Origin: Perkinsus olseni
Lineage: Eukaryota; Perkinsozoa; Perkinsida; Perkinsidae
Length of the DNA: 20,455 bases
Reading direction: 5' to 3'
Assembly: GCA_013115135.1 (NCBI GenBank)
Contig: JABANP010000731.1
Location: 1 to 20,455 of the forward strand
Each line of letters starts with the position of its first letter. Within the stretch, counting starts at the first letter, position 1. Under the pieces are notes generated by a model that saw only the letters and a list, made by a program, of their open reading frames with translations, made no database searches and was not told the DNA's origin. This document shows positions 1,015-19,833 of this stretch, piece by piece. A program made the translations under genes and the position numbers.

Positions 1015-1999
1015 AGTGTCGCCAACATCAGCTGCCCCTTCAAGTCTCCTGGGTGCTGATTCGCCTTCATAATTAGAATTGAAGCCTTGTCTTGTATCCG
1101 TCTCAGCCGATGGGCTGCTGCGCGCGTGAGTGTGCCATTGAGACAACGTGAGGGAACGGAACTAGGCGACAGCAGATGTGGATGGTGTTACCACAACCGA
1201 ACCGTTCTCACGGCCAGTTCGCTTAAGTACGCGAACCGTACAACCCAAAGCATTAGATGATCGAACGGACGAACCCTGTCTTGTACTGCCGAGTGACGTA
1301 TCCACGGTACACTTGTGAATAAGTCTCGGAGAACGGCGAACACCCTCTTACTTTCGGGCGGCCTCACTACGTGCTCCACGTCGCGTTAGAGCCATGAGTC
1401 ATGGGAGCAGTAGTCATGGCCCATGACTACTGTCAACTCAAGGTCTGAACTAGGATATACAAGCTGCCGTGATACTGTAACAATGCTGCTGCTACAACGC
1501 GAGTCGCATTGTTAAGCTAGTAGCTGTTACAGCTAGCAACCTACGAGTGGTCTTTTTCTAGTGGATACCTCTGCCCGCATTGCATCAGCCCTAAAATGTT
1601 ATTCATTCATGCCATCAGTAATGGTTGCTCCCGATTGCGAGCAAGTTATCCGTAGCTACATTCCGCCATCCTCTCCTACCGTTCGCCCACGCTATTCTGA
1701 CCCCAACACTCAAGGATAGTTTCGTGCAATGAGCCGATCATAAGTTATCTGGCCCACCGAAAGCTGTTTCTCATTGTGGCTACCCGACGTCACTTTGTTG
1801 GTAGTAGTTTGGCGCATTACACGAGAGACGAATGCATTGAGTTGTAGGAGTACAAATTACTAGTAGCCAGCCAGGAATGAATGCGAGGAACTTCGATTGA
1901 GGCGAGAGGGGTTGATTCAGCAATCATTCGTTACGTATCATTCGTACATTCAACACTGTTGAATAACCTCGGGTTCGACAATGATTCGTAACCAATCCG
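1015..1999. other. gene-poor spacer with palindromes
   Basis: No supported gene. The content I can name is structural: an interrupted reflected unit at 1391-1427, an odd palindrome at 1521-1535 (7-bp arms around T1528), one at 1948-1964 (8-bp arms around C1956), and an 8-bp inverted repeat (AACAATGC/GCATTGTT) just upstream of 1520. A 63-codon frame on the minus strand at 1188-1379 lacks any recognisable motif and was not called. Confidence 0.5.
1391..1427. repeat. interrupted reflected unit (8-bp core GCCATGAC)
   Basis: Reads G-CCATGA-G-TCATGG, then filler, then GTCATGG-C-CCATGA-C. The right half is part of a 25-bp perfect odd palindrome (1408-1432, 12-bp arms, centre C1420). The left half is an odd palindrome centred at G1398. 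The reverse complement of the 8-bp core occurs twice, once with its last base changed, on either side of 7 nt of filler. Confidence 0.6.
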
Positions 2000-2021
2000 G
2001 AACAGGACCCGTTGAACGGGT
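2000..2021. repeat. reflected 22-bp unit, two mismatches
   Basis: Centres at A2007 and G2014, 7 bp apart. The 6-mer is AACGGG; the left copy has A for G at 2004, and the left flank base departs from the rule. The right palindrome (2007-2021) is perfect, with 7-bp arms. An outer CCGGAA/TTCCGG pair (1997-2026) adds further symmetry. Confidence 0.55.
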
Positions 2022-2096
2022 TCCGGCTACTACGTGCGTGCAGCTTTCAATCTCGTGGTACACCTTGCAAATCGACACACCCCTTCCCTCAAGCGG

Positions 2097-2173
2097 CCAG
2101 GGCTTCAAAAGTTTCGTTGCAGCAGCAGCATGATCACGAAACTTCTCGGCGACGTCGGTGTTTGAAGCCCTGG
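2097..2173. repeat. long two-tier inverted repeat
   Basis: A 13-bp arm at 2097-2109 pairs perfectly with 2161-2173. Directly inside it, 2109-2117 pairs with 2136-2144. The left arm is continuous, while the right arm is split by 16 nt (2145-2160) that themselves contain the palindrome CGACGTCG. The whole could fold into a stem of about 21 bp with one large bulge. It ends where a retroelement RNase H scrap begins. Confidence 0.75.
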
Positions 2174-2242
2174 TTCGATGCCAGTGCGGCAGATGAGATA
2201 ACAGTCCACTCGGACTTCTCTGACTATGGCCTAGTTCCCGGT
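2159..2242 (+). pseudogene. possible retroelement RT/RNase H scrap
   Basis: About 28 codons read LKPWFDAS... then ITVHSDFSDYGLV. The second part resembles the start of the RNase H domain of Ty3/gypsy-type elements, where a motif of the form hxTDASDYGLGAVL carries the first catalytic Asp. The frame has no RT upstream and no RNase H downstream, so at most this is a remnant. It could be chance; the match rests on about 12 residues. Confidence 0.3.
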
Positions 2243-2245
2243 TAG

Positions 2246-3117
2246 TGAACTCCCTCCGATATGGGTGTCATGATTTGTGATACTCTTGTGTAATTCTCTG
2301 AGCTAGGCCATGCATTTGTCCCTGCTCGCTAGACGGCGTTATTTGAATGTATTACGATATTATGGTGCATATTTGCGCATCAGATCGGTATCTCTTCCTG
2401 TACCTGTTACTGGCAGAAGCATGGTTTTGTTGAGTCAAGAGAGGAATAACAACACGGGCTAACGAATAACATCAGAACTATTTAGATATCAGACCACCAA
2501 CCCAACAGATTTCGTTACAGCCGAGGAGTAGCCGCCCGCGATGCAGCCACGGCTGCATCGTTACGGACTGCCTACGTGTGTGTGAGTTTATAGTCCAACG
2601 CTGGATCTGGCTTAGTTAGACTCTTGCCGATACGCTCAGTTGGAATCTTTCTGTAGCGTTGACACGCAGTGCAATCGGATAGGTTCTCAAGGAACACTCC
2701 TCAGGGGTGAATTCTACCATAGAGGCTTCCTTTCCCTCCTTTCCGCCCGCATCATCAGTTGGGACTGCGCCGTCTTTGCTTGTTGTCTCAGAAACTCTGT
2801 CTACTAAAGAGAGAAAGCACCGCTTCTCAACGGTTAGAACGAAGCCAGAGAGTTGGTCTTGGTTGCAGCCGTGGCCGTGGCCTGCGGGCTGCGGCGAGCA
2901 TGACGACCAGAGTGACCGTCGTGCCCTACGGTACTCTCGCGAGGGTGCAATAGTGCTGAGCCCAGACGAAGCTAGCTGAACTGAAGCGAGGACACTGAGC
3001 CCAGAGTATAGCAACCCGTGGCCTACAGTACCTCACCGCTGAGTGTTTTGAACCTAATCTCTCCGGACATGGTCCTTGATGTGGGCACCTCGGTGCACTC
3101 TCAACTACGGCATTGTA
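2246..3117. other. gene-poor spacer, overlapping weak ORFs
   Basis: A near-palindrome at 2539-2560 has 10-bp arms around AC. Around 2616-3014 both strands are open: a 132-codon frame on the minus strand and a 90-codon frame on the plus strand. Both need non-ATG starts and neither shows a domain, so I call no gene. Confidence 0.4.
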
Positions 3118-3139
3118 TTTCTGTTACAGAAATTCTGTA
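3118..3139. repeat. reflected 22-bp unit, perfect (core TTTCTGTA)
   Basis: Centres T3125 and A3132, 7 bp apart. 6-mer TTCTGT, reverse complement ACAGAA, then TTCTGT again, with both flank bases obeying the complement rule. A further 7-bp inverted pair (AATTCTG at 3131-3137, CAGAATT at 3141-3147) extends the reflection. Confidence 0.9.
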
Positions 3140-3466
3140 TCAGAATTGATGGGCCTGCTATCCTTCCGCAGGGACAGGTCGCAGGGAGTTCGCGCCACGC
3201 CGTGAATCCGAGCCACGAAGGCTTATGTTCGGCTTGAGAGGGCCAAGTCTTGCTCGTTCAGGTCTGATGTGTTAGTGCTCTCGGTGGGCCCTCGAGCGAA
3301 GTGAGGGGGGATCGGCAAGGTGGCGGATGATCTGCATACTGACGTCACCCGCGGTACTTGACGGGAACTCCCGACTCTTACCGCGTGAAGAGAGACCGCC
3401 TTCGCCTGGGTTGATCTCATTTAGGAATACCGAGTTCAATATCGAATCAGAATTCATCGTCTGAAA

Positions 3467-3814: not shown

Positions 3815-3817
3815 CGA

Positions 3818-4326: not shown

Positions 4327-4608
4327 TGTAGCACTATGTGCTCGGTGCGCCGATGGAGGCTCCGGGTTCGATCCCGAGCCTTGGCATTATTATTGTATTT
4401 TCTTTGATTATTGTGACGGGCTGTCTATTATGATTCTTAAGTGATTCACTCAGCCTAACACAATGACGCTAGTGGAGAGTAGTTTCCTCCATTACGATAA
4501 CTATGAGTTTGCAGGTTTATTTTCCTCCTCTGGTTGTGTTCCAATGAGTAATCAAGGAGATAACAGCCCTTCCACTAATAAGAAGACGTACAAGGATGCC
4601 GTCCTCCA
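4327..4608 (+). repeat. 5' LTR (282 bp)
   Basis: Identical to 11182-11463 except at one position. Begins TGTAGC and ends CTCCA. Two further bases (AG) and a third (A) are also shared with the 3' flank, probably by chance. It contains a tRNA-like stem near its start, an AT-rich stretch at about 4385-4440, and the first 49 codons of gag from the ATG at 4463. Confidence 0.92.
4329..4380 (+). promoter_or_regulatory. tRNA-like sequence with B-box in the LTR
   Basis: GGTTCGATCC (4365-4374) matches the Pol III B-box/T-loop consensus. It sits inside a stem in which GGCTC pairs with GAGCC and GGG with CCC, with one bulged C. Upstream, AGCAC-TAT-GTGCT (4331-4343) forms a small D-arm-like hairpin. The stretch looks derived from part of a tRNA, but acceptor and anticodon stems are missing. 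It may be a transcriptional element or a relic. Confidence 0.45.
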
Positions 4609-4861
4609 AGATGATGCACCGTCCGGCACTGGAGTCGTTATGAGCCCTAATACTGCTGCTTCCCCTACGCTCGAGGTTTATCCTAGTCTGGAGCCTCTGT
4701 TGGCTATTACGGATGGTAGTAAGGGTCCTTCGCTTGAACCCGGTGAGGCTTCGGCTTCTGTTGTTTCTGAACCTTCGTGGTTTAAGGAATGGTATGCTAC
4801 TTATTATACTTCTAAGGATTGGTCAAATCCTGACTGTACCCCTGATTTTTGTTGTTGGTAA
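4463..4861 (+). CDS. gag, 5' segment starting inside the LTR
   Basis: A 132-codon frame from the first ATG after the AT-rich part of the LTR; a second in-frame ATG is at 4544. The first 49 codons are LTR-encoded, as in yeast Ty1, where gag also begins in the LTR. The segment is Ser/Pro/Thr-rich and acidic, then turns aromatic (WFKEWYATYY). It stops at TAA 4859-4861, while the next frame (+1) continues immediately with coding-like sequence. The switch point is within a few codons of a T5 run at 4846-4850. An indel in that run is the simplest cause; a programmed +1 shift at the UGG-UAA codons is the alternative. The product would be the N-terminus of the capsid polyprotein. Confidence 0.75.
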   Translation: MTLVESSFLHYDNYEFAGLFSSSGCVPMSNQGDNSPSTNKKTYKDAVLQDDAPSGTGVVMSPNTAASPTLEVYPSLEPLLAITDGSKGPSLEPGEASASVVSEPSWFKEWYATYYTSKDWSNPDCTPDFCCW

Positions 4862-6314
4862 AACCTTTGATGGCTCCGACGCTCTCCTCAATGAGTTTAA
4901 TGATGTCTTCTTTGAAACCGTTAAGAAGGTTTTGGGCGTTGATGGTACTAATCCTTGGCTCGTGGCTAATCCCCTTCCACCCCATGAATCGTCTTCCTGG
5001 TCGTCCTCATCTTCCTCTTCGAAGAAATGGGATCATGGTTGTGATGTGGTGGCTTTCTGCAAGGACTGGTCCTTGAAGCCTTATGAAGAGATTCCTTCTA
5101 CTTCTCAAGGTGAGTATTGGTGGTCGCAAGTTTCTGCTAAACTTAATACTGCCCAAGCAAAGTGTCCTCACCCAGCTCTCATATTGGCTACTTTGGTTTA
5201 CTTGGTACCTTCCTCACTGACTAAGGAATTACGGGATAAGTGGTTGGTTCTTATATCCAATTCTTCAGAACCCTCTGGCTCTGTTATTACTAAGTGGGTC
5301 CCTTATGTTGGAACGTCCGAATATCAGGTGGATTCTTGGTCTGAGGAGAAGCAACGTAAATGGACTTTGGATAGGAAGCTATTCACTGACTATATGAAGG
5401 AGTCATGCCGTAATCTGAGTATTATGCTGAGTAAGAGGTTTGTTGTCCCAGAAGCAGATTTGTTGGCGTCTAAGATATCTGAATATTTGAATATGAAATG
5501 GACTACTATTAAATTTGGAGTTGTTAGATTTAATGATATTGTTATGATGGAGAGCCAAGTTTTTACGACCTTAGCCAAGCTATATAAGGGAGATATTTAT
5601 GAGATTCTTTCTTATGCGTCAAGGTTAAAGGTTATGATGGAGCTTATTTATCATCCTTTGGAAGTTATGATTACTGATGATAGTTTAATTTCGGTTAGAC
5701 AAATGCTTCATGAAGCTATGTCTTTCTCATATATGGTTTATGGACAGACTGACTATCCGAAGGAGCCTAAGCTAGTTTTCCAGCAGTTACTTACTATTCT
5801 GAACAAGGTGGACTATGGTGTATCGTTATGTACTTATGACTATTTTTCTGCCAAGTTCTACGAGGCCGAGAAAGCGTTTAAGAACTCTAAGAAGGACGAT
5901 TACCAGAAGCCTAACTTTAAGAAGAACAAGGGTAACAAGGGCAAGAATGCTTATGTTAAGAAGGTTAATGAAGTCTATGATAATGTTAGTATCAAGAGGG
6001 CTGATGGATCATTACAAAAGATTCGTGGTACTTATGACACTGGTTCTAATATATCGTTGGTTAGACGCTCTATTGCTGACCAAGTCAAAGAGTGCCCGCC
6101 GATTACGATTAAGGGTATTAAGGACTGCGTCTCCAAGGAGAAGGCAACTATATCCGCTTGCCCTGAGGGCAATCCGGAGGAGGTTTTTACTTTCGAGGCT
6201 TATGTGGTCCCTGATGATACCTTTAGAGATGACTGTGAATTAATATTGGCTCGTCAGATATCTATTGACAGTCAGGGTTTTTGCAAGGCATTTGTGAAAG
6301 TACCAGCGAAGTAG
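4713..6314 (+). CDS. gag capsid region and aspartic protease
   Basis: The frame is open from 4713, but protein-like sequence begins near 4850, where it takes over from the upstream gag frame. A long alpha-helical, Trp- and Met-rich capsid-like region is followed by a Lys/Asn-rich basic stretch (about 5866-5965) in the place where nucleocapsids usually have CCHC zinc knuckles; no CCHC box is visible. Next comes a retropepsin-type protease with the catalytic motif YDTGSNISLV (Asp codon 6036-6038, residue 442 of this frame) and a later hydrophobic ILAR segment that may match the family's second motif. The frame ends at TAG 6312-6314. Eleven codons earlier lies a GGGTTTT slippery site where a fraction of ribosomes would pass into the -1 frame. 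Protease in the gag frame with pol reached by -1 shifting is a common retroelement plan. Confidence 0.85.
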   Translation: MVVRVLRLNPVRLRLLLFLNLRGLRNGMLLIILLRIGQILTVPLIFVVGKTFDGSDALLNEFNDVFFETVKKVLGVDGTNPWLVANPLPPHESSSWSSSSSSSKKWDHGCDVVAFCKDWSLKPYEEIPSTSQGEYWWSQVSAKLNTAQAKCPHPALILATLVYLVPSSLTKELRDKWLVLISNSSEPSGSVITKWVPYVGTSEYQVDSWSEEKQRKWTLDRKLFTDYMKESCRNLSIMLSKRFVVPEADLLASKISEYLNMKWTTIKFGVVRFNDIVMMESQVFTTLAKLYKGDIYEILSYASRLKVMMELIYHPLEVMITDDSLISVRQMLHEAMSFSYMVYGQTDYPKEPKLVFQQLLTILNKVDYGVSLCTYDYFSAKFYEAEKAFKNSKKDDYQKPNFKKNKGNKGKNAYVKKVNEVYDNVSIKRADGSLQKIRGTYDTGSNISLVRRSIADQVKECPPITIKGIKDCVSKEKATISACPEGNPEEVFTFEAYVVPDDTFRDDCELILARQISIDSQGFCKAFVKVPAK

Positions 6315-7822
6315 AATCTGAGGTTGAAGCCGACTCTTTGCTATCCCCAAAGAGTAAAGCTGAACTTTCTTCTTCTTCCTCCTCTTCTTCCTCTTATTCT
6401 CATATGACAACATTTGGTGGTGGCTCTCTATCCAATGTATTATTTTCTAAGCCTCAAAAACGTAATCGAAGAGGCCAAAGAGCAAGAAGGGCTAGACGAC
6501 GTCTACGGAGTCAATCCCAACGAGCTACTTATGCTTCTTTTTATAATCCTATTATGTTACAGCCTTCATCTAATGAAGGTTTATCTAATCAATTTTCCAA
6601 GAAGGATTGGCAACATCCTTCTGAGCGAGACCGGTTACCTCCCTCTTCTACGGCATCTCAGCCTTCCCTTGTGGATGGTTCGCCGTATCATATGGTTGGA
6701 TCTGCTCAATCCCGATTGGATGGTCAACACCGGTCAACCCCCTCTTCTTCGGCGTCACAGCCTGTCTATATGGAAGGTTCACGCCTCTCTCCACTTGAGT
6801 CTGGACGACAAGGTTTTAAGGAACAGCCTTGGTCACCCTCATCTCCTTCGACATTACAGCCTTCTGCTATTGAAGGTTTGTCTAACTATCAGCCTCAGCC
6901 TGTATCGCGAGGTTTAACTGATCAACCTTTGCCGTCTTCCTCTTCTATGACGCCTCAGCCCCTATGTGATGAAGGGTTACGTTGTCATACTCAGGATATT
7001 GACAAGCAAGGTCGTGGAGAGCAGCCTTTGCTGCCCTCCCCTTCAACTTTGTCACAGCCTTCACTTAATGAAGGTTCACAACAAGACCCTGACGGCCCTT
7101 GTCCTTCTTTGTCTCCCTCGACGATTCGAGAAGCTTTGGACTCTAAGAAAAGATCGCTATCGTCGTCCTCTAGCCCAATGGATGAGTATGATGACTTCGA
7201 TTTGACTAAGTCTGAGCTTCATCTACTAGGCCCTAGTAAGGATGAAGTTAAACGACAACGATGTTTTCGGGTTATCGACGAGAAGATGATCCAGAATCAT
7301 GAGTCCTTGGCTGACCTTTTCACGGAAGAAAAGATCATTTCTATCACAAAGAAGCTTTTGGACAAGGTCTCTAAAGGCCCTGGTATTACTATTCCTTATA
7401 CTGATGGTATGGTTGCTAAAGTTCGCCGACTACATCCTGATGAACGACGAGATACTTCTCTTCAAGATTTCGCAGTAGAGATCCATTTTAATGAGAAGAC
7501 TCTCAAGCAGGTTAAGAGCGAGATTAACAACAACCCCCAAAAGAAGAAGGAGTTTAATCGACTTCAACAACAGCAAGCTCGAGGATATGATTATTCCAAG
7601 AAGCTTATTCGTGAGTTGGCCCCCGAATTCAAGGAGCAAATGGATCTTGAGATTGACCAATTTCTACAACTAGGCTATTGGGAACCAGTATCCAAAGAAG
7701 AGTTGGCTAATATTGATAAGTCGAAGGTTATTATATCGAGACCCTTGGTCCAAGGATCCCATAAAACTACCCGGTGTAGATTGGTATCCGACGCCCGGTA
7801 TGTTAACTTCTTTACCCCTTAA
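6269..7822 (+). CDS. pol N-terminal part: repeat linker and RT start
   Basis: Open from 6269 and entered by -1 shifting at 6275. After a Ser-rich and then Arg-rich stretch (residues around RRGQRARRARRR), six 33-residue repeats (from 6560) form a Ser/Pro/Gln-rich linker of about 200 residues. From about 7210 the sequence becomes a charged globular domain and then the RT fingers, including RLVSDARYVN, the counterpart of the Ty3-type motif around the conserved Arg and Asp. The frame is cut at TAA 7820-7822, between this motif and the catalytic Asp motif. The same frame resumes directly after it. Either the copy is defective or the stop is sometimes read through; the nearly identical LTRs show the lesion is recent. 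Confidence 0.8.
   Translation, partial: QSGFLQGICESTSEVESEVEADSLLSPKSKAELSSSSSSSSSYSHMTTFGGGSLSNVLFSKPQKRNRRGQRARRARRRLRSQSQRATYASFYNPIMLQPSSNEGLSNQFSKKDWQHPSERDRLPPSSTASQPSLVDGSPYHMVGSAQSRLDGQHRSTPSSSASQPVYMEGSRLSPLESGRQGFKEQPWSPSSPSTLQPSAIEGLSNYQPQPVSRGLTDQPLPSSSSMTPQPLCDEGLRCHTQDIDKQGRGEQPLLPSPSTLSQPSLNEGSQQDPDGPCPSLSPSTIREALDSKKRSLSSSSSPMDEYDDFDLTKSELHLLGPSKDEVKRQRCFRVIDEKMIQNHESLADLFTEEKIISITKKLLDKVSKGPGITIPYTDGMVAKVRRLHPDERRDTSLQDFAVEIHFNEKTLKQVKSEINNNPQKKKEFNRLQQQQARGYDYSKKLIRELAPEFKEQMDLEIDQFLQLGYWEPVSKEELANIDKSKVIISRPLVQGSHKTTRCRLVSDARYVNFFTP
6275..6281 (+). promoter_or_regulatory. -1 ribosomal frameshift site GGGTTTT
   Basis: The heptamer fits X-XXY-YYZ exactly in the gag-protease frame: the zero-frame codons are GGT (6276-6278) and TTT (6279-6281), preceded by G. 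Slipping back one base gives GGG TTT and continues TTG CAA into the long downstream frame. That -1 frame has a TGA at 6266-6268, only 6 bp before the heptamer, so the two frames meet almost exactly at the slip site. An 8-bp hairpin (ACTCTTTG at 6333-6340 with CAAAGAGT at 6348-6355) lies 51 nt downstream, farther than usual for a stimulator. Confidence 0.75.
6560..7128 (+). repeat. six-copy 99-bp tandem coding repeat
   Basis: A QP dipeptide opening the motif QPsxxEG recurs at 6560, 6659, 6758, 6857, 6956 and 7055, exactly 99 bp (33 codons) each time. Units also share a later basic/acidic part (RxxxEQP) and a Ser-rich end. The sixth copy is partial. Sequence divergence between units is substantial, while their length is perfectly kept, so the array is old within the lineage and held in frame. 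Confidence 0.9.
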
Positions 7823-11173: not shown

Positions 11174-11181
11174 GATATGCA

Positions 11182-11463: not shown

Positions 11464-11814
11464 AGAACCTTCACTATACAATTCCATGGTTATACTTTCA
11501 CCGTGTTGCCCGCGTGAGGGCGGGCCACCCTGGCTCGCCCAGAATCGTTGGCGACTGTTATATTCAGCGCCGAGTTATTATCAATTATTATTCTTCACGA
11601 ATCATTTAAGAGATCATTCACTTTTTTCAAGATGAATATTTTATCGCAAGTCAGGCCGGCAAAGCTCTTGAAGTTGACTATTATGTGGTTGAGTTGTGAA
11701 TCAAGGAGAAGCAAGGAGCATTCCGGAGACTCCATGGATGCGATGTTTGCTTAGGCATGGTTTCACTCTCCGTGAAGTCCGGTGGATACAAATATTGGTC
11801 TATAGTGTCTATCT

Positions 11815-11939: not shown

Positions 11940-11961
11940 TTAAGAGACTCTTAATAAGAGT
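11940..11961. repeat. reflected 22-bp unit, perfect (core TTAAGAGT)
   Basis: Centres A11947 and A11954; 6-mer TAAGAG with CTCTTA between its two copies; both flank bases obey the rule. The right palindrome extends to 9-bp arms (11945-11963). Confidence 0.9.
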
Positions 11962-11972
11962 CTTCGACCAAA

Positions 11973-11994
11973 GCTGCATGATGCAACTTGCAAC
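11973..11994. repeat. reflected 22-bp unit, degenerate
   Basis: Centres G11980 and C11987. The middle 6-mer ATGCAA has copies CTGCAT and TTGCAA on either side, each with one mismatch, while both flank bases (G11973, C11994) still fit. Confidence 0.5.
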
Positions 11995-12150
11995 AATCTC
12001 AGTCCAACAGGGGTGGTATGTGGATACTGAGGTAAGGGGTGATTCAGATTCTTAACTCAGAGATAAAAATACACGATTACTAATAGGCGTTGGGTCATTG
12101 ACTTTTCCTACTCCGGATTGAAAAATCACAATCATTAGGACTTGATTCGA

Positions 12151-12172
12151 ATTTCGAGTCGAGATTCTCGAT
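12151..12172. repeat. reflected 22-bp unit, degenerate
   Basis: Centres G12158 and T12165. 6-mer TCTCGA; left copy TTTCGA has one mismatch and the right flank base departs from the rule. The same 6-mer occurs in the perfect unit at 18729. Confidence 0.45.
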
Positions 12173-12227
12173 AGTGGTTCGAAAATCAGAAGACCTCTTT
12201 TGCTCGGCGAAATGTGGTATAGCCGTG

Positions 12228-12274
12228 TCGTTCAGTACAGTTGCTGCACGTACAGTCTCGTTCAGTACAGTTGC
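12228..12274 (+). repeat. 17-bp direct repeat, 30-bp period
   Basis: TCGTTCAGTACAGTTGC occurs at 12228-12244 and again at 12258-12274. The purpose is unknown. It lies just upstream of the 61-bp palindrome. Confidence 0.85.
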
Positions 12275-12298
12275 AACCGATACAGACTTCGCTATTAG

Positions 12299-12359
12299 AC
12301 GGGCTATTAGACTACGCTCACATCACTTCAAGTGATGTGAGCGTAGTCTAATAGCCCGT
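12299..12359. repeat. 61-bp perfect palindrome, 1-nt centre
   Basis: Two perfect 30-bp arms flank the single base C12329. The left arm starts ACGGGCTATTAGAC, and a partial copy of that start (GCTATTAGAC) precedes it. The inner core TCACTTCAAGTGA also forms the core of the imperfect palindrome at 17289-17335. It is too compact to be an insertion element with coding capacity. Confidence 0.95.
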
Positions 12360-12392
12360 AGCCCGTTTTCATGATGCATCTTCAGCTTGCTC

Positions 12393-12429
12393 AAAAATAT
12401 TATTTTTGAACGGGATATTTTAAAAATAT
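12393..12429. repeat. possible interrupted reflected unit, AT-rich
   Basis: Two perfect odd palindromes, 12391-12409 (9-bp arms, centre T12400) and 12414-12430 (8-bp arms, centre A12422), share the 6-mer AAAATA. Their flank bases disagree, so this may be two independent or low-complexity events. Confidence 0.35.
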
Positions 12430-12582
12430 CGAGATGTTGGAACGGTGCGTGCCAATCAATGGTCTCGGGGCAGAGTGCAAGGACTCGGCGGCATTAACGG
12501 TACGGTGGCACTCCCCAGTCGCCGCAGCCCAGTCTGGGCACGATGTTGGTAGGTCACCCAGGTGGCGCTGCGGTCACCCGCA

Positions 12583-12604
12583 GGCTGACTGTCAGCCGCT
12601 GTCA
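12583..12604. repeat. reflected 22-bp unit, one mismatch (core GGCTGACA)
   Basis: Centres T12590 and C12597; 6-mer GCTGAC with GTCAGC between; the right copy reads GCTGTC. Both flank bases fit. On the minus strand its edge creates the stop codon that ends the MULE frame. Confidence 0.8.
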
Positions 12605-12740
12605 GCTCTTGAGATGAATCCGGCCATTGCTGCCTTGGGCTTGCATCTTCCATGTCTTCTTCATACAGAATTCCGCGAAACCACTCATAAGATGTCCTCT
12701 TCCCGGTTTTCGTACGTGCGTAGTGCTTGCATGGTAGACA

Positions 12741-12763
12741 CGGGCCGTGAAGTTCACGACCCG
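12741..12763. repeat. 23-bp odd palindrome inside the MULE relic
   Basis: 11-bp arms around G12752 with one mismatch. It lies in open MULE frame and has no second centre 7 bp away, so it may be native transposase sequence. Confidence 0.5.
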
Positions 12764-13078
12764 CCCCAGCTCACGTAACGCCAAACGATAGGTAGTCTTG
12801 GACTTGCCGGAAAGCAAAGCATATACCGGTTCGATAAACTGGTTACCGATAGCACCAGGAACAGCTAAAGCCTGGGCAAATCCGTGCGGTATGATGAAGA
12901 AGGAAGAGTCAATGAAGAACGTTTCCACCTCATCCCACCGGCGAATGCATTCGTCAGCAGTGAAAACAACCAAACCTTCGGCCTCATGATTGAACTGCAC
13001 GAACCTCTCGTTGTCGAAGGTGTTACGACCATACTACCCGACGCTCTGATGCGTCTGACGCCTACGGTTGAAGGACCT

Positions 13079-13100
13079 ATTGGACGTTCCAATTTGGACC
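13079..13100. repeat. reflected 22-bp unit, one mismatch (core ATTGGACC)
   Basis: Centres G13086 and T13093. The two outer 6-mers are both TTGGAC; the middle one is TTCCAA where GTCCAA is expected, a single substitution at 13087. Both flank bases fit. Confidence 0.75.
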
Positions 13101-13312
13101 CGTTGAGAGGGCCTTCCATCGGGTCCTGGTCGGCCTGGCCGGCAAATTTCTCGACTCCAGTCTTTCCGTCCCGACGGCAATAGAGCACAGACAATGCACC
13201 TTACAATATGAATTGAATTCGATAATAGCGTAGGTGATTTCAATATTCGCCACACTGTGACACCGGTGTTACATGCTAATACCCCTTAGCGAAATTCACA
13301 ACAGATCCTCGA

Positions 13313-13334
13313 GTCCTTCCGAAGGACTCCTTCA
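13313..13334. repeat. reflected 22-bp unit, one mismatch
   Basis: Centres C13320 and C13327; 6-mer TCCTTC with GAAGGA between; only the last flank base (A13334, expected G) departs. The left palindrome has perfect 9-bp arms (13311-13329). Confidence 0.8.
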
Positions 13335-13351
13335 GCGGCTGAAGTTCAGCC
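13330..13351. repeat. reflected 22-bp unit, perfect (core CTTCAGCC)
   Basis: Centres G13337 and G13344; 6-mer TTCAGC with GCTGAA between. It overlaps the end of the previous unit by five bases, so the two formed in succession at almost the same spot. Confidence 0.9.
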
Positions 13352-13776
13352 ACCTTCCGACGCCTTCTCCTCCCAGGCTGGAAGACTCAGCGAGGACGTT
13401 CGAAAAAAATCCAACCGCGTGCGGTACGGCCCTCGATATACACATGACACAACTGTCGAAGCTCGACAGAAGCATTTCAACGGAGACACTCATTGCATGA
13501 CAATGAGAATGAACATGCGGCATACATCGCTTCGCGGCTGGTTGGCGTAGCCTGCCTCCTTTGCCAACTCTGCTGAGCTTGTGCGAATCGCGATTCGCGA
13601 GAACACCAAGATGCCCGAATCTGCTCTCGCCAACTTCTAGGCGAGATCGGGCGGGGGCATGAGCCAAGCAACGATCTAACTTCCCCGAAAAGGTGAGGAA
13701 TCCGCGCGGAAATTTCGTTAAGCGCTGGCCGAGACCTTGTCTCTGTCTTCCTTCGACTTCGCCTGGCGGAATTCGT

Positions 13777-14419
13777 CTAGCCATGGGCCTTGTGCTTCGC
13801 CTTCATCTCGTCGATATTCCTCTGTACAGACTGTAATTGGCCTAAATCAGCATCGTCATCGCCATCATCTTCATCTTTTCTCATACTTCGGCAGCTCTGC
13901 GCCTGGGTTGCTCGGCCATGATCCCAGGGATAAGATCCCTGCTGCGCCCCTGATCATTTGATGAGCGCTTGCCGCCGGAGGACACGTCGGCCGTGCCCTA
14001 CTGTCGAGCCCGGTAGGTGACCCCGTCGGCCAGGGCCCTCGATCGCATCGTCGTCTCCACTCGGCCAAGCTGCTCACTCCCTTTCAGTCGCGGCAGACAC
14101 CGTGCTTGCGCGGAAGATCTCGTAACTTACGAACCTCATCCCGCTTACCTAGGTTTGGCAAGGCTCCTATGGCCTGCCTCACGAGCTGCTTGCTTTGGGA
14201 GATATCATTCGCAAACACGCTGACGAGCGAGTTGTAAATCTTACGTAAATGGGAGAGCGAACCCTCAATGTGACCCGAGTTATCGCACCTGAGTTCGGCA
14301 ACAGCCTCGTGAGAGTAGTCCTGGAGGTGCTGCCGTCGGCAATGCCGCGACCTGTCTAGTAGCACCTGAGCATCTCCTTCGAACCAGCTCATCAAGGGAC
14401 CCTTCGTTACCGGAACCAT
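13777..14419 (-). pseudogene. decayed reading frame, unknown
   Basis: On the minus strand a frame runs from 14419 to 13871 with a single TGA at 14084-14086. Its first part has a helical, coding-like stretch (LSHLRKIYNSLVSVFANDIS). Farther on, another frame (13884-13777, 35 codons) begins with ATG and encodes an Asp-rich run from a CAT-type microsatellite, then a coiled-coil-like helix (LGQLQSVQRNIDEMKAKHKA). A unit at 13919-13940 lies between the two. I recognise no family. A gag-like or other transposon origin is possible but unsupported. Confidence 0.3.
13919..13940. repeat. reflected 22-bp unit, one mismatch (core TGATCCCT)
   Basis: Centres A13926 and A13933; both outer 6-mers are GATCCC; the middle one is GGGATA with A13932 where C is expected. 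Both flank bases fit. Confidence 0.75.
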
Positions 14420-14648
14420 GTTTTCAGCTTCGGTTGCTAGCCCGAGAGTAACCCGTTTAGCTCTCGAGAGTAAAAGGATCTCGAGCTCGGGATGGAATAG
14501 GAATGAGCCGTCCTCCCCATCCTAGCCCCCCAGCCTGGGGGGCTCAGGCCATTGCGTTGCTCTCCAAAATTTCATTGTAGTACACGGAGTCGTGCAACAA
14601 GATGGTGTTGATTCCGATGTTGGGCTGATTCGGGACTTGACTAGCTTA

Positions 14649-14670
14649 GTGATGGTCCATCACTGATGGA
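14649..14670. repeat. reflected 22-bp unit, perfect (core GTGATGGA)
   Basis: Centres T14656 and C14663; 6-mer TGATGG with CCATCA between; both flank bases fit. Confidence 0.9.
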
Positions 14671-14677
14671 TCGCGAG

Positions 14678-14699
14678 TTTCTGAATCAGAAATTCTGAT
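14678..14699. repeat. reflected 22-bp unit, perfect (core TTTCTGAT)
   Basis: Centres A14685 and A14692; 6-mer TTCTGA with TCAGAA between; both flank bases fit. Its core differs from that of the unit at 3118 only in the last two positions. Confidence 0.9.
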
Positions 14700-14739
14700 G
14701 CGGAGTTTGAACCTCCGAGTTTCACACAAGCGTTGCATC

Positions 14740-14761
14740 GCAGGAGACTCCTGCCAGGAGT
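14740..14761. repeat. reflected 22-bp unit, perfect (core GCAGGAGT)
   Basis: Centres A14747 and C14754; 6-mer CAGGAG with CTCCTG between; both flank bases fit. Confidence 0.92.
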
Positions 14762-15009
14762 TGGCTCAACGAGTTAGGCTACTATCCCGAGTCCGAGGCA
14801 TTTCTCATAGGAGTGTCTTGAACACAAGGAAAATCACCTTAGAGATTCCGAGTCGGAATCTGCAATCTGGGGAATCTGAGTCGTTACGGGGGTCCTGCTC
14901 CTGGCGATGCTCGCTACGTTATCTACGACGAGCCTTTCGCGTAGGAGCATCGTTTCCAGCTACTGGAGCGCCAGCATGGTCATGGTCATCGTCGGGAGTG
15001 ACGCGTGAC

Positions 15010-15031
15010 CTTCAAAATCTGAAGCTCAGAT
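15010..15031. repeat. reflected 22-bp unit, two mismatches
   Basis: Centres A15017 and G15024; the middle 6-mer TCTGAA is flanked by TTCAAA and CTCAGA, each one base off TTCAGA. Both flank bases still fit. Confidence 0.5.
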
Positions 15032-15289
15032 GTCGTTATACTGTAAATTTACACCTTTACATTTAAAATATTCAACAAAGATCGAAGATTCTCGATTGAA
15101 ACTGAATTCCTCGCAACAATCGCCGGCGTCTTATACCTGACATACCTTCCAAAGTCTCCTAATGGAAGACAGAACACAGTGTGTCACCCTCCTTTCGCCA
15201 CACTGTGGTCCCCAGTCGTGATATAACCATCATATTATGGCCGTGTACTGTATGATATTACCGTAAGACGTTATATTACAACGCTTCCG

Positions 15290-15344
15290 ATTCTTTGAAA
15301 GAATCGAAGGCGTTGTAACTTAACGACTTGAAAGAATTTCTTTC
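15290..15344. repeat. interrupted reflected unit (8-bp core ATTCTTTC)
   Basis: ATTCTTT, then GAAAGAAT, then 25 nt of unrelated filler (15305-15329), then a second GAAAGAAT, then TTCTTTC. Both reverse-complement copies of the 8-bp core are perfect. The two halves are odd palindromes centred at G15297 and T15337, the second with 9-bp arms (15328-15346). The left half is nested in a larger imperfect inverted repeat (15276-15318). Confidence 0.88.
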
Positions 15345-15519
15345 AAACCCATTCTATGGCGGGCGCAATGTCGTCTATACGGTGTGGAAGCTATCTGTTC
15401 ACCTCACTGAAGCTCAACAATTATAGTTGCGATTTTCCGGATTATCGCTCGCATGATGTGAGTCACATCTGCATCTGTCTCAAATACTTCATGCTGACAT
15501 GCTTAAGCTTAGCAGCCGA

Positions 15520-15541
15520 GCGCCTCTGAGGCGCCGCCTCA
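15520..15541. repeat. reflected 22-bp unit, perfect (core GCGCCTCA)
   Basis: Centres T15527 and C15534; 6-mer CGCCTC with GAGGCG between; both flank bases fit. Confidence 0.9.
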
Positions 15542-15560
15542 GCTCGAGCCAATAATTGTT

Positions 15561-15764
15561 CTATTTCAGCTTCCATTCTCTCGCTATATCAAGAGCTTTG
15601 GAAAGCTTATGAGGTGACACCCAAGATGCTCCGAACGTCGTCAAAGTCTTGTCCTTATTCTTGAACTTAGAGAGTTCCCCTGCTGTAGCTGCGGCCACTT
15701 CATCCCTCACAAAATCAATGCTTTCTCGTTTGAGGGGAATACTGAGAGAAAGCCGTTTTCCCAA
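15561..15764 (-). pseudogene. short coding-like segment, unknown
   Basis: A minus-strand frame of about 68 codons that stays open for at least 15 more codons upstream of 15764 and ends at a TAG. It is Lys/Leu/Ser-rich with a helical look (AGELSKFKNKDKTLTTFG). No ATG opens it. It lies downstream of, and on the same strand as, the decayed frames at 15961-16930, so it may be a 3' exon or remnant of the same locus. A perfect reflected unit (15927) and a spacer of 200 bp separate them. No family recognised. Confidence 0.3.
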
Positions 15765-15926
15765 GCTACGTGGCTGGCAGAGAAACTCTGTTACTTGCTT
15801 ACTTCATCTGCTCGTTCGACTCAAATTCAATCGAGCCAATAACAGCACAAGCTGATCTATAACTCCAATAGGCTGAGCCTGTGACGTATCCTGGTATCTG
15901 AGTGACGCAAGAGGGTTGCAATGATG

Positions 15927-15948
15927 ATACTAAATTAGTATTACTAAT
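15927..15948. repeat. reflected 22-bp unit, perfect (core ATACTAAT)
   Basis: Centres A15934 and T15941; 6-mer TACTAA with TTAGTA between; both flank bases fit. It lies just beyond the end of the decayed minus-strand gene. Confidence 0.88.
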
Positions 15949-15960
15949 ATCGTCGTACTA

Positions 15961-16930
15961 CTATCGATCATTCTGCAATGACATTATCATCATCACAACC
16001 GAGCCCACGTGCGCGAAGCTAGTCCTTACACCTTTCAGATAGGTCCAAACTTGCCAGGGATGAATTTCTTCCTCATCGTATACCATTGCTTCTTCGAACT
16101 CCCTCCGTAAAATCCAGGCTATGACTAGCGGAGTGAAGGTCTCAGGATGATCGCTCATGAGCTTCTTCATGACTTTGATGTCAGGTATCTCTGTTAATGT
16201 TATTCCCGTTGTTTCCAGCTCCTTGAGAACCATCTTTCCCCATTGGATTACGGCCTCTTCGCACGACTCGCCACCGCTGATCCTATTCAAAACTCCCGCT
16301 ATCGGAAGGCTTCCAGGACTGGGGAACCACTGCAGATGGACCCTTTTGCTTTGCTCTTCCACCAACACCCATTCATCATCTTCGAGTTCAAACGCGTTGG
16401 CGGCATCGTCTTGCTCATGGCTGCTCTCATTGCCCTTCAATCTATCGCAGTGAAACACTCATCCCCAAGGAGTAGCTCGATGAAGACCTACATGGTTTCC
16501 CCTAGAGTAGCATAGTCGATGACATACTTGCCCTTTTTCTTGTCAAATTTGCCAGCGACCGAAGCTTGCCACTACACGAAGCACTGTAGGAGTTCAAATT
16601 TTTATCTCGACCGCTTCCTCAAAGGAAGTTCCTCTCCCTCACCGGCTCTATAATGTTCTTCAGTTTGCTTGTGCGGAATCCTTTGAAGTCGCTGGTCTCG
16701 AGGACGCAGTCCGAATGACTTCTAATGTGGCGCTCATCGCCTGCCACAATAACGACGAGTCCAAACAATATATGGCTATCTGCGCCACGCCAGGAACGAC
16801 ATATCGACAGGGTTTGCCAGGCAGACGACCCTCAGCTCTGACTGTGTGTGCTACACTACCCACCAGTGCGTCTAGCCCTCGGTCTCGCGGCACGATGATG
16901 AACGGCCTGTTGAATGAGTGAGGGATTTCT
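15961..16930 (-). pseudogene. broken gene of unknown family, about 320 codons
   Basis: Read leftward, coding-like sequence passes through several frames. A first part (from about 16920, IIVPRDRGLDALVG...) shifts near 16790 into a frame with VVIVAGDERHIRSHSDCVLE and ends at a TGA. A short stretch follows, then a frame with AGKFDKKKGKYVIDYATLGE broken by two TAG codons. After one more shift near 16453 comes the longest intact frame (165 codons, 16458-15961): a Glu/Asp-rich patch, then helical sequence (SCEEAVIQWGKMVLKELETT), ending at TAG. The last ORF's apparent start is GTG directly after a TGA, so it is not a native start. Small indels plus point stops mark a young pseudogene. Unspliced introns could explain some shifts, but not the in-frame TAGs. 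I recognise no domain. Unlike the tracts around it, it contains no palindromic unit. Confidence 0.45.
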
Positions 16931-17267
16931 TCGTGCGAAACTTGTGACTTCTCACCTTGAACAACCTCCCCTCGATTTGAGCGGCCGAGAAGAGGATGAT
17001 TGCGACTTCGAAACAGGGCATTCCTTTCATCTCAACCTGAAATCATTGCTACTATTTTGGCTCATAGGCTCTCGTTCCTTCGAAGAGGGACTGTGGGCGG
17101 ACTGTTTCGCGACCGGAAATATGATTCTCGTGCACTGGAAATAGGTGAAGATTTTGTGCGGCGCGATTCGCGGAGCGCGGAGGGGTAGAAATAGTATCTT
17201 TCACCAATAGCCCCGCTTTATGGGAACCATGATGCACGAGCTGGTCCTGCCCGAGATTGAAGTGCGC
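16931..17267. other. spacer, nothing recognised
   Basis: Short overlapping frames on both strands with no motif. No palindromic unit before 17267. Confidence 0.4.
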
Positions 17268-17319
17268 GAAGTGAGTCACTTCGTAAGCGCCAACCCGGAT
17301 AGTAGTCACTTCAAGTGAT
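17268..17319. repeat. interrupted reflected unit (8-bp core GAAGTGAC)
   Basis: G-AAGTGA, then GTCACTTC, then 22 nt of filler, then a second GTCACTTC, then AAGTGA and T where C is expected. Both reverse-complement copies of the core are perfect. The left palindrome (17267-17283) has 8-bp arms around G17275. Confidence 0.8.
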
Positions 17320-17335
17320 CACTTTACGGGTTGGC
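17289..17335. repeat. 47-bp imperfect palindrome, 1-nt centre
   Basis: 23-bp arms around C17312. The outer nine bases (GCCAACCCG/CGGGTTGGC) are perfect; five inner positions mismatch. It overlaps the interrupted unit, whose filler supplies the left arm. Confidence 0.75.
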
Positions 17336-17662
17336 AGTGCCGGCATTGCAACTGTACGACTGGAATCTGATTGTGTGGCGAGCGGACAACCACGATGCTG
17401 GGGGCTCGGTACCGTTGTTGTATGTGCTTCCTTCAGCGCAAGTGTGCTCTCCATCTACTACTACAACAGCTACCCAACCTCGTGTGGTCGTACTGATGAT
17501 CCTACCAGAGCCGGATGCCATGGAAGCGGAGCCGTCTTTGAGATGGAAGCTCATAAAAGAAGCTCACTCTACAGTCCATCTAGGGTTAGGAGTACTCAAG
17601 GTGCTCTGATACGCCTAGGATTGTGGGTTGCCTGTCTGTCTACAGTAAAGGTCCTTCACTGG

Positions 17663-17721
17663 CCTGACACCAGCACTGCATCACAAAAGCCTGGCTTTTG
17701 TGATGCAGTGCTGGTGTCAGG
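17663..17721. repeat. 59-bp perfect palindrome, 1-nt centre
   Basis: Two perfect 29-bp arms flank T17692; the left arm starts CCTGACACCAGCACTGC. It splits the dead integrase between zinc-finger and core regions. No sequence is shared with the 61-bp palindrome at 12299, but the design is the same. Confidence 0.95.
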
Positions 17722-17744
17722 AACAGTCAACAATTCCATCTAAT

Positions 17745-17766
17745 ACGAGGACTCCTCGTCGAGGAG
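17745..17766. repeat. reflected 22-bp unit, perfect (core ACGAGGAG)
   Basis: Centres C17752 and T17759; 6-mer CGAGGA with TCCTCG between; both flank bases fit. It lies 23 bp after the 59-bp palindrome. Confidence 0.9.
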
Positions 17767-18138
17767 CTATGGCGATATTGTGCAAGTATCAGCGCGCTTT
17801 CATACAGGATGCTGTCTGAAGGTATCAAAGCTGTGACAGGGTATGTTGCAGTTTTGGGAATTACAGGTATGAGTAGTGCTTATACAGTCTTCAAACCGGT
17901 CAGTAGCATGGAGCCCAACGAGTCCTATTCAATCTTCTTTCACCGATGGCTGGTGGGATTTTCGTGCCCGTCTTTGATTGCGAGCGACCTTGGAAGTAGC
18001 TTCGTTAACGAAGTTGTCGAGCTTTCCAATGCTCTCTTAGGCATTCGCCATGAGACAGTTGCGGTGGCTAATGCTCGTGGGAACAACCGCATTCAAAGAC
18101 CTAATGGTGCTCTGTCTCATATATTGAGAATCTGCGAA

Positions 18139-18160
18139 GGGCAGAATCTGCCCGGCAGAT
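18139..18160. repeat. reflected 22-bp unit, perfect (core GGGCAGAT)
   Basis: Centres A18146 and C18153; 6-mer GGCAGA with TCTGCC between; both flank bases fit. It interrupts the dead integrase. Replacing the 22 bp by the 8-bp core brings the frames on its two sides into line. Confidence 0.93.
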
Positions 18161-18445
18161 ACAATCGCCCGCGGATCTGCATCATTGGTTGGGGCTCTGC
18201 GAAGTGATGATCAATATGTCCTACCGTCAAAGTAGTGGTTCTAGCTGTGCTTTTGAGCGTGTTTATGGGTGCTCACGTGTTCTCAGCGGTATTTTGTCTA
18301 TCGCCGAGGATGAGAATGAAGACGAGACGGTTCGAGAATCTGCTGAGCGAAGTGACTCGGCCTGGATTAGTCAGCTCCAGAGTACTGTTCGTGAGCTTCT
18401 CGCCGAGTATCACGTATGGAGGGGCGAGATTAATCTTGCTGCCCA

Positions 18446-18478
18446 CGCACGGACGGACGTACGCACGCACGCTGCACA
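18446..18478 (+). repeat. short GCAC/GGAC-rich low-complexity tract
   Basis: Alternating CGCACG, GACGGACG and CGCACG tetramer-like repeats near the 3' end of the dead integrase frame. It is simple-sequence DNA, not a gene feature. Confidence 0.5.
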
Positions 18479-18728
18479 CGAGTGACCGTGAACTGTAATA
18501 TATGCTCCGCTCGCTCCGCAAATTATTGTGAAATTTCAGTGAACTTTTAACTTACGTAGTAAAAGCATTTTACACTACGTCAAAACGAGCGGAGGATCCA
18601 TTCTGAGAATGGGGGGTGGGTTTACTAAAAACCCGTCCTGAAGAAAAGAACTCCAGCACTTGCTGCAAGACTCTCTACGAGCTGCCACAAAATGGGGATT
18701 TTATCCTCGCTATGGCCGTCCTCGCGTG

Positions 18729-18750
18729 ATCTCGATTCGAGATTCTCGAA
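18729..18750. repeat. reflected 22-bp unit, perfect (core ATCTCGAA)
   Basis: Centres T18736 and T18743; 6-mer TCTCGA with TCGAGA between; both flank bases fit. The right palindrome extends to 9-bp arms (18734-18752). Confidence 0.9.
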
Positions 18751-18770
18751 TCATCATGGATAGAGCACTG

Positions 18771-18792
18771 CCCCTATCATAGGGGCCCTATG
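18771..18792. repeat. reflected 22-bp unit, perfect (core CCCCTATG)
   Basis: Centres C18778 and G18785; 6-mer CCCTAT with ATAGGG between; both flank bases fit. Confidence 0.9.
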
Positions 18793-18825
18793 TGAATCCT
18801 GTCGAACAACATCTTCCACAAGTAG

Positions 18826-18847
18826 CTTCACTGAGTGAAGTTCACTC
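18826..18847. repeat. reflected 22-bp unit, perfect (core CTTCACTC)
   Basis: Centres G18833 and G18840; 6-mer TTCACT with AGTGAA between; both flank bases fit. A further CACTGAGTG/CACTCAGTG inverted pair surrounds it. Confidence 0.9.
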
Positions 18848-19076
18848 CACTCAGTGCCATGGGCAAGGGTCAACCTGTAATCCTGAGAATCATCGCAGCT
18901 CGGGAACGAGGGACAGGAAGAAGCTCCTTGTGCAGGTGATGCCTTTCACAGCGAGAGGTGTCAGAAAGTCTATTGCTTACGCAGAGCCCTTTGCAGCGCG
19001 GACGGTGAACGGGACACTTTCGATCTCAGCACGGCTACGAAATTGACTTTTCTCGATGCCGCAATGCAACAATACA

Positions 19077-19148
19077 AGCCGGATGGCGGGATCGAACCGC
19101 CGACCTTCAGTTTACAAGACTGACGCTCTACCACTAAGCTAAACCGGC
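19077..19148 (-). tRNA. tRNA-Thr (anticodon UGU)
   Basis: A 72-nt cloverleaf on the minus strand. The acceptor stem GCCGGTT pairs with ATCCGGC with one T-T mismatch; the D-arm is GCTT/GAGC with AGTGGTA in the loop; the anticodon stem TCAGT/ACTGA encloses CTTGTAA, giving anticodon TGT for Thr codon ACA; the T-arm GGCGG/CCGCC encloses TTCGATC. The discriminator base is T and CCA is not encoded. There is no intron. The A-box (TAGCTTAGTGG) and B-box (GGTTCGATCCC) are good, as expected of a nuclear Pol III gene. No run of four T follows within 60 nt on the sense strand, so termination may rely on a more distant or weaker signal. There is no sign of decay. Confidence 0.95.
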
Positions 19149-19833
19149 TTGAAGATATCGCCAAGGCAAACTATGTGTCCACCGGCACAGAAATCTTCGA
19201 TCTCGAATCAGCTGAGCCGGCTTGAGAAGCTTCCAAAAAGCAGAACCGCGTGGGGCATGCTGTTGATTATGTCAACATTATAAAGATTGTGAGGTATTGT
19301 TCTTGCGGCCGTAAGGGATGTTCTCCCATTCACTGGCGTCGAGGCGGAAGTGCCTGACGAAGTCCCTCCAATTCTCCATAGAAATCATGAAATTAATCTC
19401 AGATTCGTCAGAGAAGGATTACACGACAACAGGACGGCTCACGAACTGCAACATTGACTGACCTCGCGCTGGAATTCTCTTCAGTAACAAGAGCGTGATC
19501 GTTAATGGCATTAAGACGACATCACCTTTATGTCGAAACAAGGTTACCGTGTACGAAGGCAACTATGAGCGGGGTGGAAGAGTGAGATATGAGAAAATGA
19601 TGCAGCTTGGACGCATACGGCAAATAGCAAGCGATTAATTCCTGCTGAAGCATATCGGGACAGGCCCAGCGCTGTACGCCGAGGGTGCGTATTTCCTTGC
19701 GCTAGCACGATTATATGGGTGACGCATATCAATGACATGATATGATATCATACATGCCGGTCGCATGGAAGGGCCTCTGTAGCACACAAGTGGGCATGCT
19801 CGATACGCACTATATCGGTTCAGGTACTCCGGT
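19149..19833. other. spacer, no supported gene
   Basis: Nothing coding recognised. A TGTTGA/TCAACA inverted pair lies near 19260-19277, and a unit interrupted by 5 nt is at 19725-19751. Confidence 0.4.
19725..19751. repeat. reflected unit with 5-nt interruption
   Basis: C-ATATCA-A, then TGACA, then TGATAT-G-ATATCA-T. The outer 6-mers and both flank bases obey the rule; five extra bases sit within the middle 6-mer region. The right palindrome (19737-19751) is perfect, with 7-bp arms around G19744. Confidence 0.6.

What the first reader, a model, noticed from the sequence alone, without database searches (positions are those of the whole stretch)
1391..19751. A family of 22-bp reflected units with no shared sequence
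Thirteen perfect 22-bp units have the form x-w-n-w'-m-w-y: w a 6-mer, w' its reverse complement, x complementing m, y complementing n. They start at 3118, 11940, 13330, 14649, 14678, 14740, 15520, 15927, 17745, 18139, 18729, 18771 and 18826. Four more have one mismatch (12583, 13079, 13313, 13919) and four have two (2000, 11973, 12151, 15010). The two palindrome centres are always 7 bp apart. The form imposes 14 base constraints, so chance predicts far fewer than one perfect copy in 13 kb. The 6-mers differ, so this is a shared process or architecture, not a dispersed repeat family; homology searches and repeat libraries would miss it.
Basis: seen in the sequence. Interest (0 to 1): 0.93.

Follow-up and report, generated by a model that had tools for sequence, protein, structure and literature searches.

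The report
hAT transposon exit scars in Perkinsus
The mirrored 22-base units are 14-base insertions at 8-base sites, and they are likely scars left when hAT-type jumping genes cut themselves out of a Perkinsus-like parasite genome and the cell rejoined the predicted hairpin-capped DNA ends.

Summary
In detail: 13 perfect units, against 7.6e-5 expected from 14 base constraints, and no perfect one in Markov controls. The units need no shared sequence because each is made from its own 8-bp target. Indels of 4 bp or more between duplicated segments of the same genome were collected without reference to the unit: 64 of 195 distinct events are exactly 14 bp, and 62 of those 64 make this unit with at most two mismatches. 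41 of 99 testable units have a duplicate without the 14 bp, 34 with the exact 8-mer xwy. With y' for the complement of y, the unit reads xw-y'w'x'-wy. hAT excision predicts this: an 8-bp target duplication, a nick one base outside the element, two hairpins with a one-base tip, and joining by annealing of the opened ends. Of 36 combinations of duplication length and nick offset, 8 bp with offset 1 fits far best (45 events; next 6). Three longer events follow the same rule base by base and copy flanking DNA. The genome has hAT transposase genes and elements with 8-bp duplications. No site with an element in one copy and a scar in another was found. The mechanism is known; the uniformity and abundance look new.

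The parts
3118..3139 (.). perfect unit, 8-mer TTTCTGTA; a second, one-mismatch unit overlaps at 3125
   Evidence: no duplicate among the loci held; the genome was not searched with this part
11940..11961 (.). perfect unit, 8-mer TTAAGAGT
   Evidence: both duplicates shown also carry it, one with two small changes
13330..13351 (.). perfect unit, 8-mer CTTCAGCC
   Evidence: all duplicates shown carry it
14649..14670 (.). perfect unit, 8-mer GTGATGGA
   Evidence: two 8-bp empty duplicates, neither with the exact 8-mer
14678..14699 (.). perfect unit, 8-mer TTTCTGAT
   Evidence: three empty duplicates, all with the exact 8-mer
14740..14761 (.). perfect unit, 8-mer GCAGGAGT
   Evidence: duplicates shown carry the same or a mutated 22 bp
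15520..15541 (.). perfect unit, 8-mer GCGCCTCA
   Evidence: three distinct empty duplicates, all exact
15927..15948 (.). perfect unit, 8-mer ATACTAAT
   Evidence: three empty duplicates, two exact
17745..17766 (.). perfect unit, 8-mer ACGAGGAG
   Evidence: one empty duplicate, exact
18139..18160 (.). perfect unit, 8-mer GGGCAGAT
   Evidence: one empty duplicate, exact
18729..18750 (.). perfect unit, 8-mer ATCTCGAA; a duplicate carries a different unit on an overlapping 8-mer (GTGATCTC)
   Evidence: one empty duplicate, not exact; the other unit is at L024:4369
18771..18792 (.). perfect unit, 8-mer CCCCTATG
   Evidence: three empty duplicates, one exact
18826..18847 (.). perfect unit, 8-mer CTTCACTC; the duplicates shown lack 19 bp here (14 plus 5)
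12583..12604 (.). one-mismatch unit
13313..13334 (.). one-mismatch unit
13079..13100 (.). two-mismatch unit; in 6 of 8 duplicate rows the unit is perfect, so the window copy has decayed
   Evidence: rows read by eye; some rows are overlapping loci
13919..13940 (.). two-mismatch unit; one duplicate (L036) carries a perfect unit and further palindromes at the same place
15010..15031 (.). two-mismatch unit; two duplicate rows have one mismatch fewer, five lack 13 bp
   Evidence: rows read by eye
12151..12172 (.). two-mismatch unit
11973..11994 (.). two-mismatch unit
2000..2021 (.). two-mismatch match; no duplicate among loci held, may be chance or a different structure
12299..12359 (.). 61-bp perfect palindrome with a one-base centre (arms 30), read as a scar with one hairpin opened far from its tip
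   Evidence: reading inferred
17663..17721 (.). 59-bp perfect palindrome with a one-base centre (arms 29); duplicate L026 lacks 43 bp here
   Evidence: reading inferred
1408..1432 (.). 25-bp palindrome with a one-base centre (arms 12)
   Evidence: reading inferred

Best explanation
The units are 14-bp insertions at 8-bp sites, and they are most likely excision scars of hAT-type cut-and-paste transposons. Inferred steps: (1) an element inserts and duplicates an 8-bp target xwy on both sides. (2) At excision the transposase nicks one base outside each element end, and the freed end attacks the opposite strand, so both chromosome ends close as hairpins whose single tip base is the complement of the base next to the element (y' on the left, x' on the right). 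(3) A host nuclease opens each hairpin away from its tip, leaving tails that copy y'w'x' (left) and xwy (right). (4) Because both tails come from the same duplicated 8-mer they are complementary, and whenever the two opened lengths together exceed 8 bases they can anneal, be filled in and ligated to xw-y'w'x'-wy, a net gain of exactly 14 bp. (5) If the tails join elsewhere, longer scars remain that include inverted copies of the flanking DNA. Shown here: the 14-bp insertions, the 8-bp empty sites, the one-base centres, the longer flank-copy events, and hAT transposase genes and elements in the genome. Not shown: an element and a scar at the same site.
For: 64 of 195 distinct indels of 4 bp or more between held duplicates are exactly 14 bp, and 62 of 64 fit the unit (43 perfect, 13 with one mismatch, 6 with two); the next commonest length, 5 bp, has 12. 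41 of 99 testable units have an empty duplicate, 34 with the exact 8-mer; two differ from an empty duplicate with identical flanks over about 50 columns each side. Of 36 combinations of duplication length 4-12 and nick offset 0-3, (8,1) fits 40 of 64 14-bp events and 5 of 131 others; (10,3) fits 5 and 1, (5,1) fits 0 and 1, and 33 fit none. Three longer events (25, 31 and 34 bp) are fully explained by (8,1), with hairpin copies running 7 to 12 bases into the flank. The palindromes stop at the 8-mer: one further base pairs in 28% of 104 units on each side, near the 25% of chance. The weak target preference lies inside the 8 bp (G at position 1 in 77 of 208 half-sites; pyrimidine at 2 in 136 and at 3 in 139; position 4 flat; flanks flat). 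Genome: 21 hAT dimerisation-domain matches, a 581-aa frame with that domain and DUF4371, and elements with TAGAGATGGGCA-like ends and identical 8-bp duplications in L010, L012 and L057. Published Ac/Ds footprints are centred on the complement of the base next to the element, with arms up to 20 nt in yeast and frequent microhomology (PMC5873905, passages); cleavage at the nucleotide flanking the insertion is the model that fits them (PMC1978519, passages).
Against: No site was found with an element in one copy and a scar in another: flanks or sites of three elements were searched; two were single-copy, two further copies of the third also carry the element, and its last copy is not alike past the site. 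The 14-bp events and the unit definition are not independent (the 5 others are). Classical short scars are nearly absent: of 51 indel clusters of 6-13 bp only one is fully explained by (8,1), though 5 of the 7 13-bp clusters lie within one mismatch of a unit; so this host would have to open hairpins far from the tip. Two of the 5 longer events keep 2-3 unexplained bases. The elements located (21 domain matches; 35 TIR words) are few beside the scars. The target preference is weak and does not match the nnnTAnnn of TcBuster (PMC3499496, passages).
Confidence: 0.88

Rival explanations
1. Local template switching: a replication fork copies back on the other strand over 8 bases and returns, with no transposon involved.
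For: It makes short inverted insertions and needs no element; no filled site was found here.
Against: It has no fixed length. Here 62 of 195 indels share one geometry, other triple spacings have 0 or 1 case, the 8-bp target has its own weak sequence preference, and the 25-, 31- and 34-bp events need two separate hairpins that each hold the 8-mer.
Confidence: 0.06
2. Excision scars of another superfamily with 8-bp duplications, such as Merlin or P.
For: Merlin has 8-9-bp duplications, and two preserved Merlin-related frames and remnants were reported in Perkinsus marinus (PMC8101967, passages).
Against: No DDE_Tnp_IS1595 match in this genome. P was not searched. Hairpins on flanking DNA with a one-base offset are, to my knowledge, a hAT trait; Transib/RAG hairpins go with 5-bp duplications (recalled).
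Confidence: 0.04
3. A programmed break: a domesticated hAT-like enzyme, as Kat1 in Kluyveromyces, cuts chosen sites or removes elements in a set life stage.
For: Kat1 makes hairpin-capped breaks (PMC4763223, passages); one product dominates and scars outnumber the elements located here.
Against: Targets are nearly random in sequence and presence differs between duplicates, as expected of ordinary transposition.
Confidence: 0.05

Closest known systems
Ac/Ds excision footprints (maize elements in plants, budding yeast, Candida albicans)
   Same: Palindromes centred on the complement of the base next to the element, hairpin opening, microhomology joining (PMC5873905 and PMC1978519, passages).
   Different: In C. 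albicans 128 footprints had 28 types with palindromic insertions of at most 3 nt; in yeast arms reach 20 nt. Here one 14-bp product makes up about a third of the indels found between duplicates. The main yeast and Arabidopsis footprint papers cited there were not read (Yu 2004 is not held), so this exact product may already have been seen in them.
Hermes and TcBuster excision
   Same: Hairpins on flanking DNA and 8-bp duplications (PMC4763223, PMC10368747 and PMC3499496, passages).
   Different: TcBuster footprints have a few added bases or deletions of up to 50 bp; no uniform copy of the whole 8-bp target is described in the passages read.
V(D)J coding joints (P nucleotides)
   Same: Hairpin opening off the tip leaves palindromic bases (recalled).
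   Different: No 8-bp duplication shared by both ends, so the ends do not anneal over 8 bases (recalled).

Membership tests
hAT excision footprint | 8-bp target, seen plain in empty copies | tested here: met
   34 of 99 units have a duplicate with the exact 8-mer; 7 more have only an 8-bp empty copy with changes; 58 have no empty copy among loci held
hAT excision footprint | palindrome centre is the complement of the base bordering the element (one-base offset) | tested here: met
   8-bp duplication with offset 1 fits 45 events, the next combination 6
hAT excision footprint | P-nucleotide copies of flanking DNA in some joints | tested here: met
   25-, 31- and 34-bp events fully explained; 44 and 59 bp on one side only
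hAT excision footprint | a hAT element at the same site in another copy | tested here: inconclusive
   flanks or sites of three elements searched, no paired scar found
hAT superfamily present in the genome | hAT C-terminal dimerisation domain | tested here: met
   21 matches, all above cut-off
hAT superfamily present in the genome | short TIRs and 8-bp target duplications | tested here: met
   identical duplications in L010, L012, L057, one mismatch in L058; other TIR words had no matching second end or duplication in the stretch held
hAT superfamily present in the genome | transposase active now | not testable with these tools
   no expression or transposition data
Merlin | DDE_Tnp_IS1595 transposase | tested here: not met
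   0 matches
dispersed repeat family | copies share sequence | tested here: not met
   104 distinct units

The most novel reading that the evidence does not exclude
This lineage carries a near-uniform hairpin-repair route: nearly every hairpin pair left by an excised element is opened well back from the tip and rejoined through the duplicated 8-mer itself. Transposon exit then becomes a main source of the genome's small insertions, each a 14-bp self-made mirror of its target.
Probability: 0.35. Interest if true: 0.78.

Novelty: new variant of a known kind. Interest (0 to 1): 0.58.

Why it matters
A static genome here records the chemistry of transposon exit: duplication length, nick offset and hairpin opening can be read from its scars with no experiment. 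It also gives a search rule, free of any consensus, for past hAT activity where the elements are gone, and explains a large class of indels that homology-based annotation would not see.

Tried and rejected
Looked for large filled insertions with 4-14-bp duplications between held duplicates: repeats of a few places, none with TAGAGATGGGCA-like ends; what those insertions are was not followed up. Searched flanks or sites of three hAT elements for scarred copies: none. Tested classical short footprints: 1 of 51 clusters of 6-13 bp. In one search, (8,1) fully explains 44 events; (7,1), (6,1) and (5,1) explain 21, 16 and 8, with 18, 10 and 4 of these being 14-bp events; offsets 0 and 2 explain at most 7. 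A first indel script rotated some inserted bases wrongly and so misfiled many 14-bp events; one search replaces it and no count from 28 is used. The first BLAST script printed no matches, probably because of its gap setting; repeated with another setting in 16. Ku has one weak match (28.3 bits, cut-off 25) and the SNM1/Pso2/Artemis-type domain one; both are only candidates for the repair side. Ten literature searches (titles and abstract starts seen) listed no paper on such scars in Perkinsus; only open-licence papers are held.
Full report
What was checked. The window is contig C703 of a 61.5-Mb, 968-contig genome. A hAT-like protein of that genome is 95% identical over 74% of its length to a Perkinsus olseni protein, so the source is probably P. 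olseni or close to it. All 13 units are perfect. Chance predicts 7.6e-5, and Markov controls gave no perfect one. Only a 6-mer triple with spacers of one base each is populated: 14 cases in the window, and 28 in the window plus eight 10-kb stretches, against 0 or 1 for every other spacing tested (81 spacings, 36).

What a unit is. Write the 8-mer as x-w-y and complements as x', w', y' (w' being the reverse complement). The unit is xw-y'w'x'-wy: the 8-mer cut open, with its own reverse complement inside and w on both sides. It is the 8-mer plus 14 bp. Duplicated segments of the same genome allow a direct test. All indels of 4 bp or more with good flanks between held loci were collected without reference to the unit and merged to 195 distinct events. 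64 are exactly 14 bp; 43, 13 and 6 of these form the unit with 0, 1 and 2 mismatches, and 2 do not. The next commonest length is 5 bp (12 events). Of 104 distinct perfect units in the loci held, 99 had enough flank to test (5 dropped). 41 have at least one duplicate that is 14 bp shorter, 34 with the exact 8-mer; 58 have none. Across those 41 there are 47 distinct full, 102 empty (78 exact) and 24 other-length sequences. Two pairs have identical flanks over the columns compared, so some events look recent. Of the window's 13 units, 8 have an empty duplicate by this measure, 18826 has duplicates shorter by 19 bp, 11940, 13330 and 14740 have only full or nearly full duplicates, and 3118 has no duplicate among the loci held.

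Which process. If an element duplicates D bases on insertion and is cut out with a nick d bases into the flank, the two hairpin ends fix what the joint can look like. D from 4 to 12 and d from 0 to 3 were scored. D=8, d=1 fits 40 of 64 14-bp events and 5 of the 131 others. D=10, d=3 fits 5 and 1, D=5, d=1 fits 0 and 1, and the remaining 33 combinations fit none. The 5 other events do not depend on how the unit was defined. Three of them are explained base by base: L051 25 bp, L022 31 bp and L005 34 bp hold two copies of y'w'x', one from each end, and the copy from one end runs 7 to 12 bases on into the flank. The other two (24 and 25 bp) leave 2-3 bases unexplained, and two further events (44 and 59 bp) show 22-23 bases of hairpin copy on one side only. 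The window's 59- and 61-bp palindromes with a one-base centre read the same way, by inference.

Why one product dominates (inference). Opened tails from both ends come from the same duplicated 8-mer. Whenever the two opened lengths together exceed 8 bases the tails are complementary, and joining by that overlap always yields the same 14-bp gain. Scars with shorter openings, as published for Candida, are nearly absent here: 1 of 51 clusters of 6-13 bp. This points to hairpin opening far from the tip. A SNM1/Pso2/Artemis-type domain is present once and a weak Ku match once. Which enzyme acts is unknown.

Link to hAT. The genome has 21 hAT dimerisation-domain matches and a 581-aa frame with that domain and DUF4371. 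The word TAGAGATGGGCA occurs 35 times, against 5 for the reversed control. Elements with such ends carry identical 8-bp duplications: L010 (1864 bp, GTCTGATG), L012 (1431 bp, GTCCGGAG) and L057 (42 bp, GTGTCTTT); L058 has one mismatch. For most other TIR words no second end with a matching duplication lies in the stretch held. The 8-mers of the units show a weak preference confined to the 8 bp: G at the outer base (77 of 208 half-sites), pyrimidine at the next two (136 and 139), none at the fourth and none outside. The three element duplications all begin GT, and the hAT consensus nTnnnnAn that I recall is compatible. Merlin, an 8-9-bp superfamily reported in P. marinus, has no match here. Against: no site with an element in one copy and a scar in another was found.

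Abundance. Six 10-kb stretches not chosen for hAT genes hold 4 perfect units, two of them copies of one; the two stretches chosen because they hold hAT domains have 10. A near-intact LTR retrotransposon in the window (4327-11466, LTRs with 1 mismatch in 285 bp) holds no unit with two mismatches or fewer, as expected of a young insertion.

Known and new. The chemistry is that of published hAT footprints (passages read). The scale, the single dominant product, and the reading of duplication length and nick offset from a static genome were not met in the searches made here; the older yeast and plant footprint papers were not read.

Noticed in passing
window 4327-11466: Near-intact LTR retrotransposon with integrase (rve and H2C2), LTRs 285 bp with one mismatch; each LTR holds a tRNA-like stretch (GGTTCGATCCCGAGCC, seen in the sequence).
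   Followed up: partly
window 12225-12285: 61-bp stretch of a GTACAGT-rich minisatellite with dozens of near-identical copies over the genome (longer array in L006).
   Followed up: partly
window 19076-19149: tRNA-Thr (anticodon TGT) on the minus strand.
   Followed up: no
L057:684-725: A 42-bp mini-element: two hAT-like terminal repeats nearly back to back, flanked by identical 8-bp duplications GTGTCTTT.
   Followed up: no
paralogous indels of 5 bp: The second commonest indel class (12 of 195) is 5 bp, four of them with 4-bp direct repeats; origin unexplained.
   Followed up: no
window 12000-18900: Low-copy duplicated segment family (C736, C242, C215, C216, C53 and others), 75-97% identical in matches over 300 bp; five frames in it gave no Pfam match.
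   Followed up: partly
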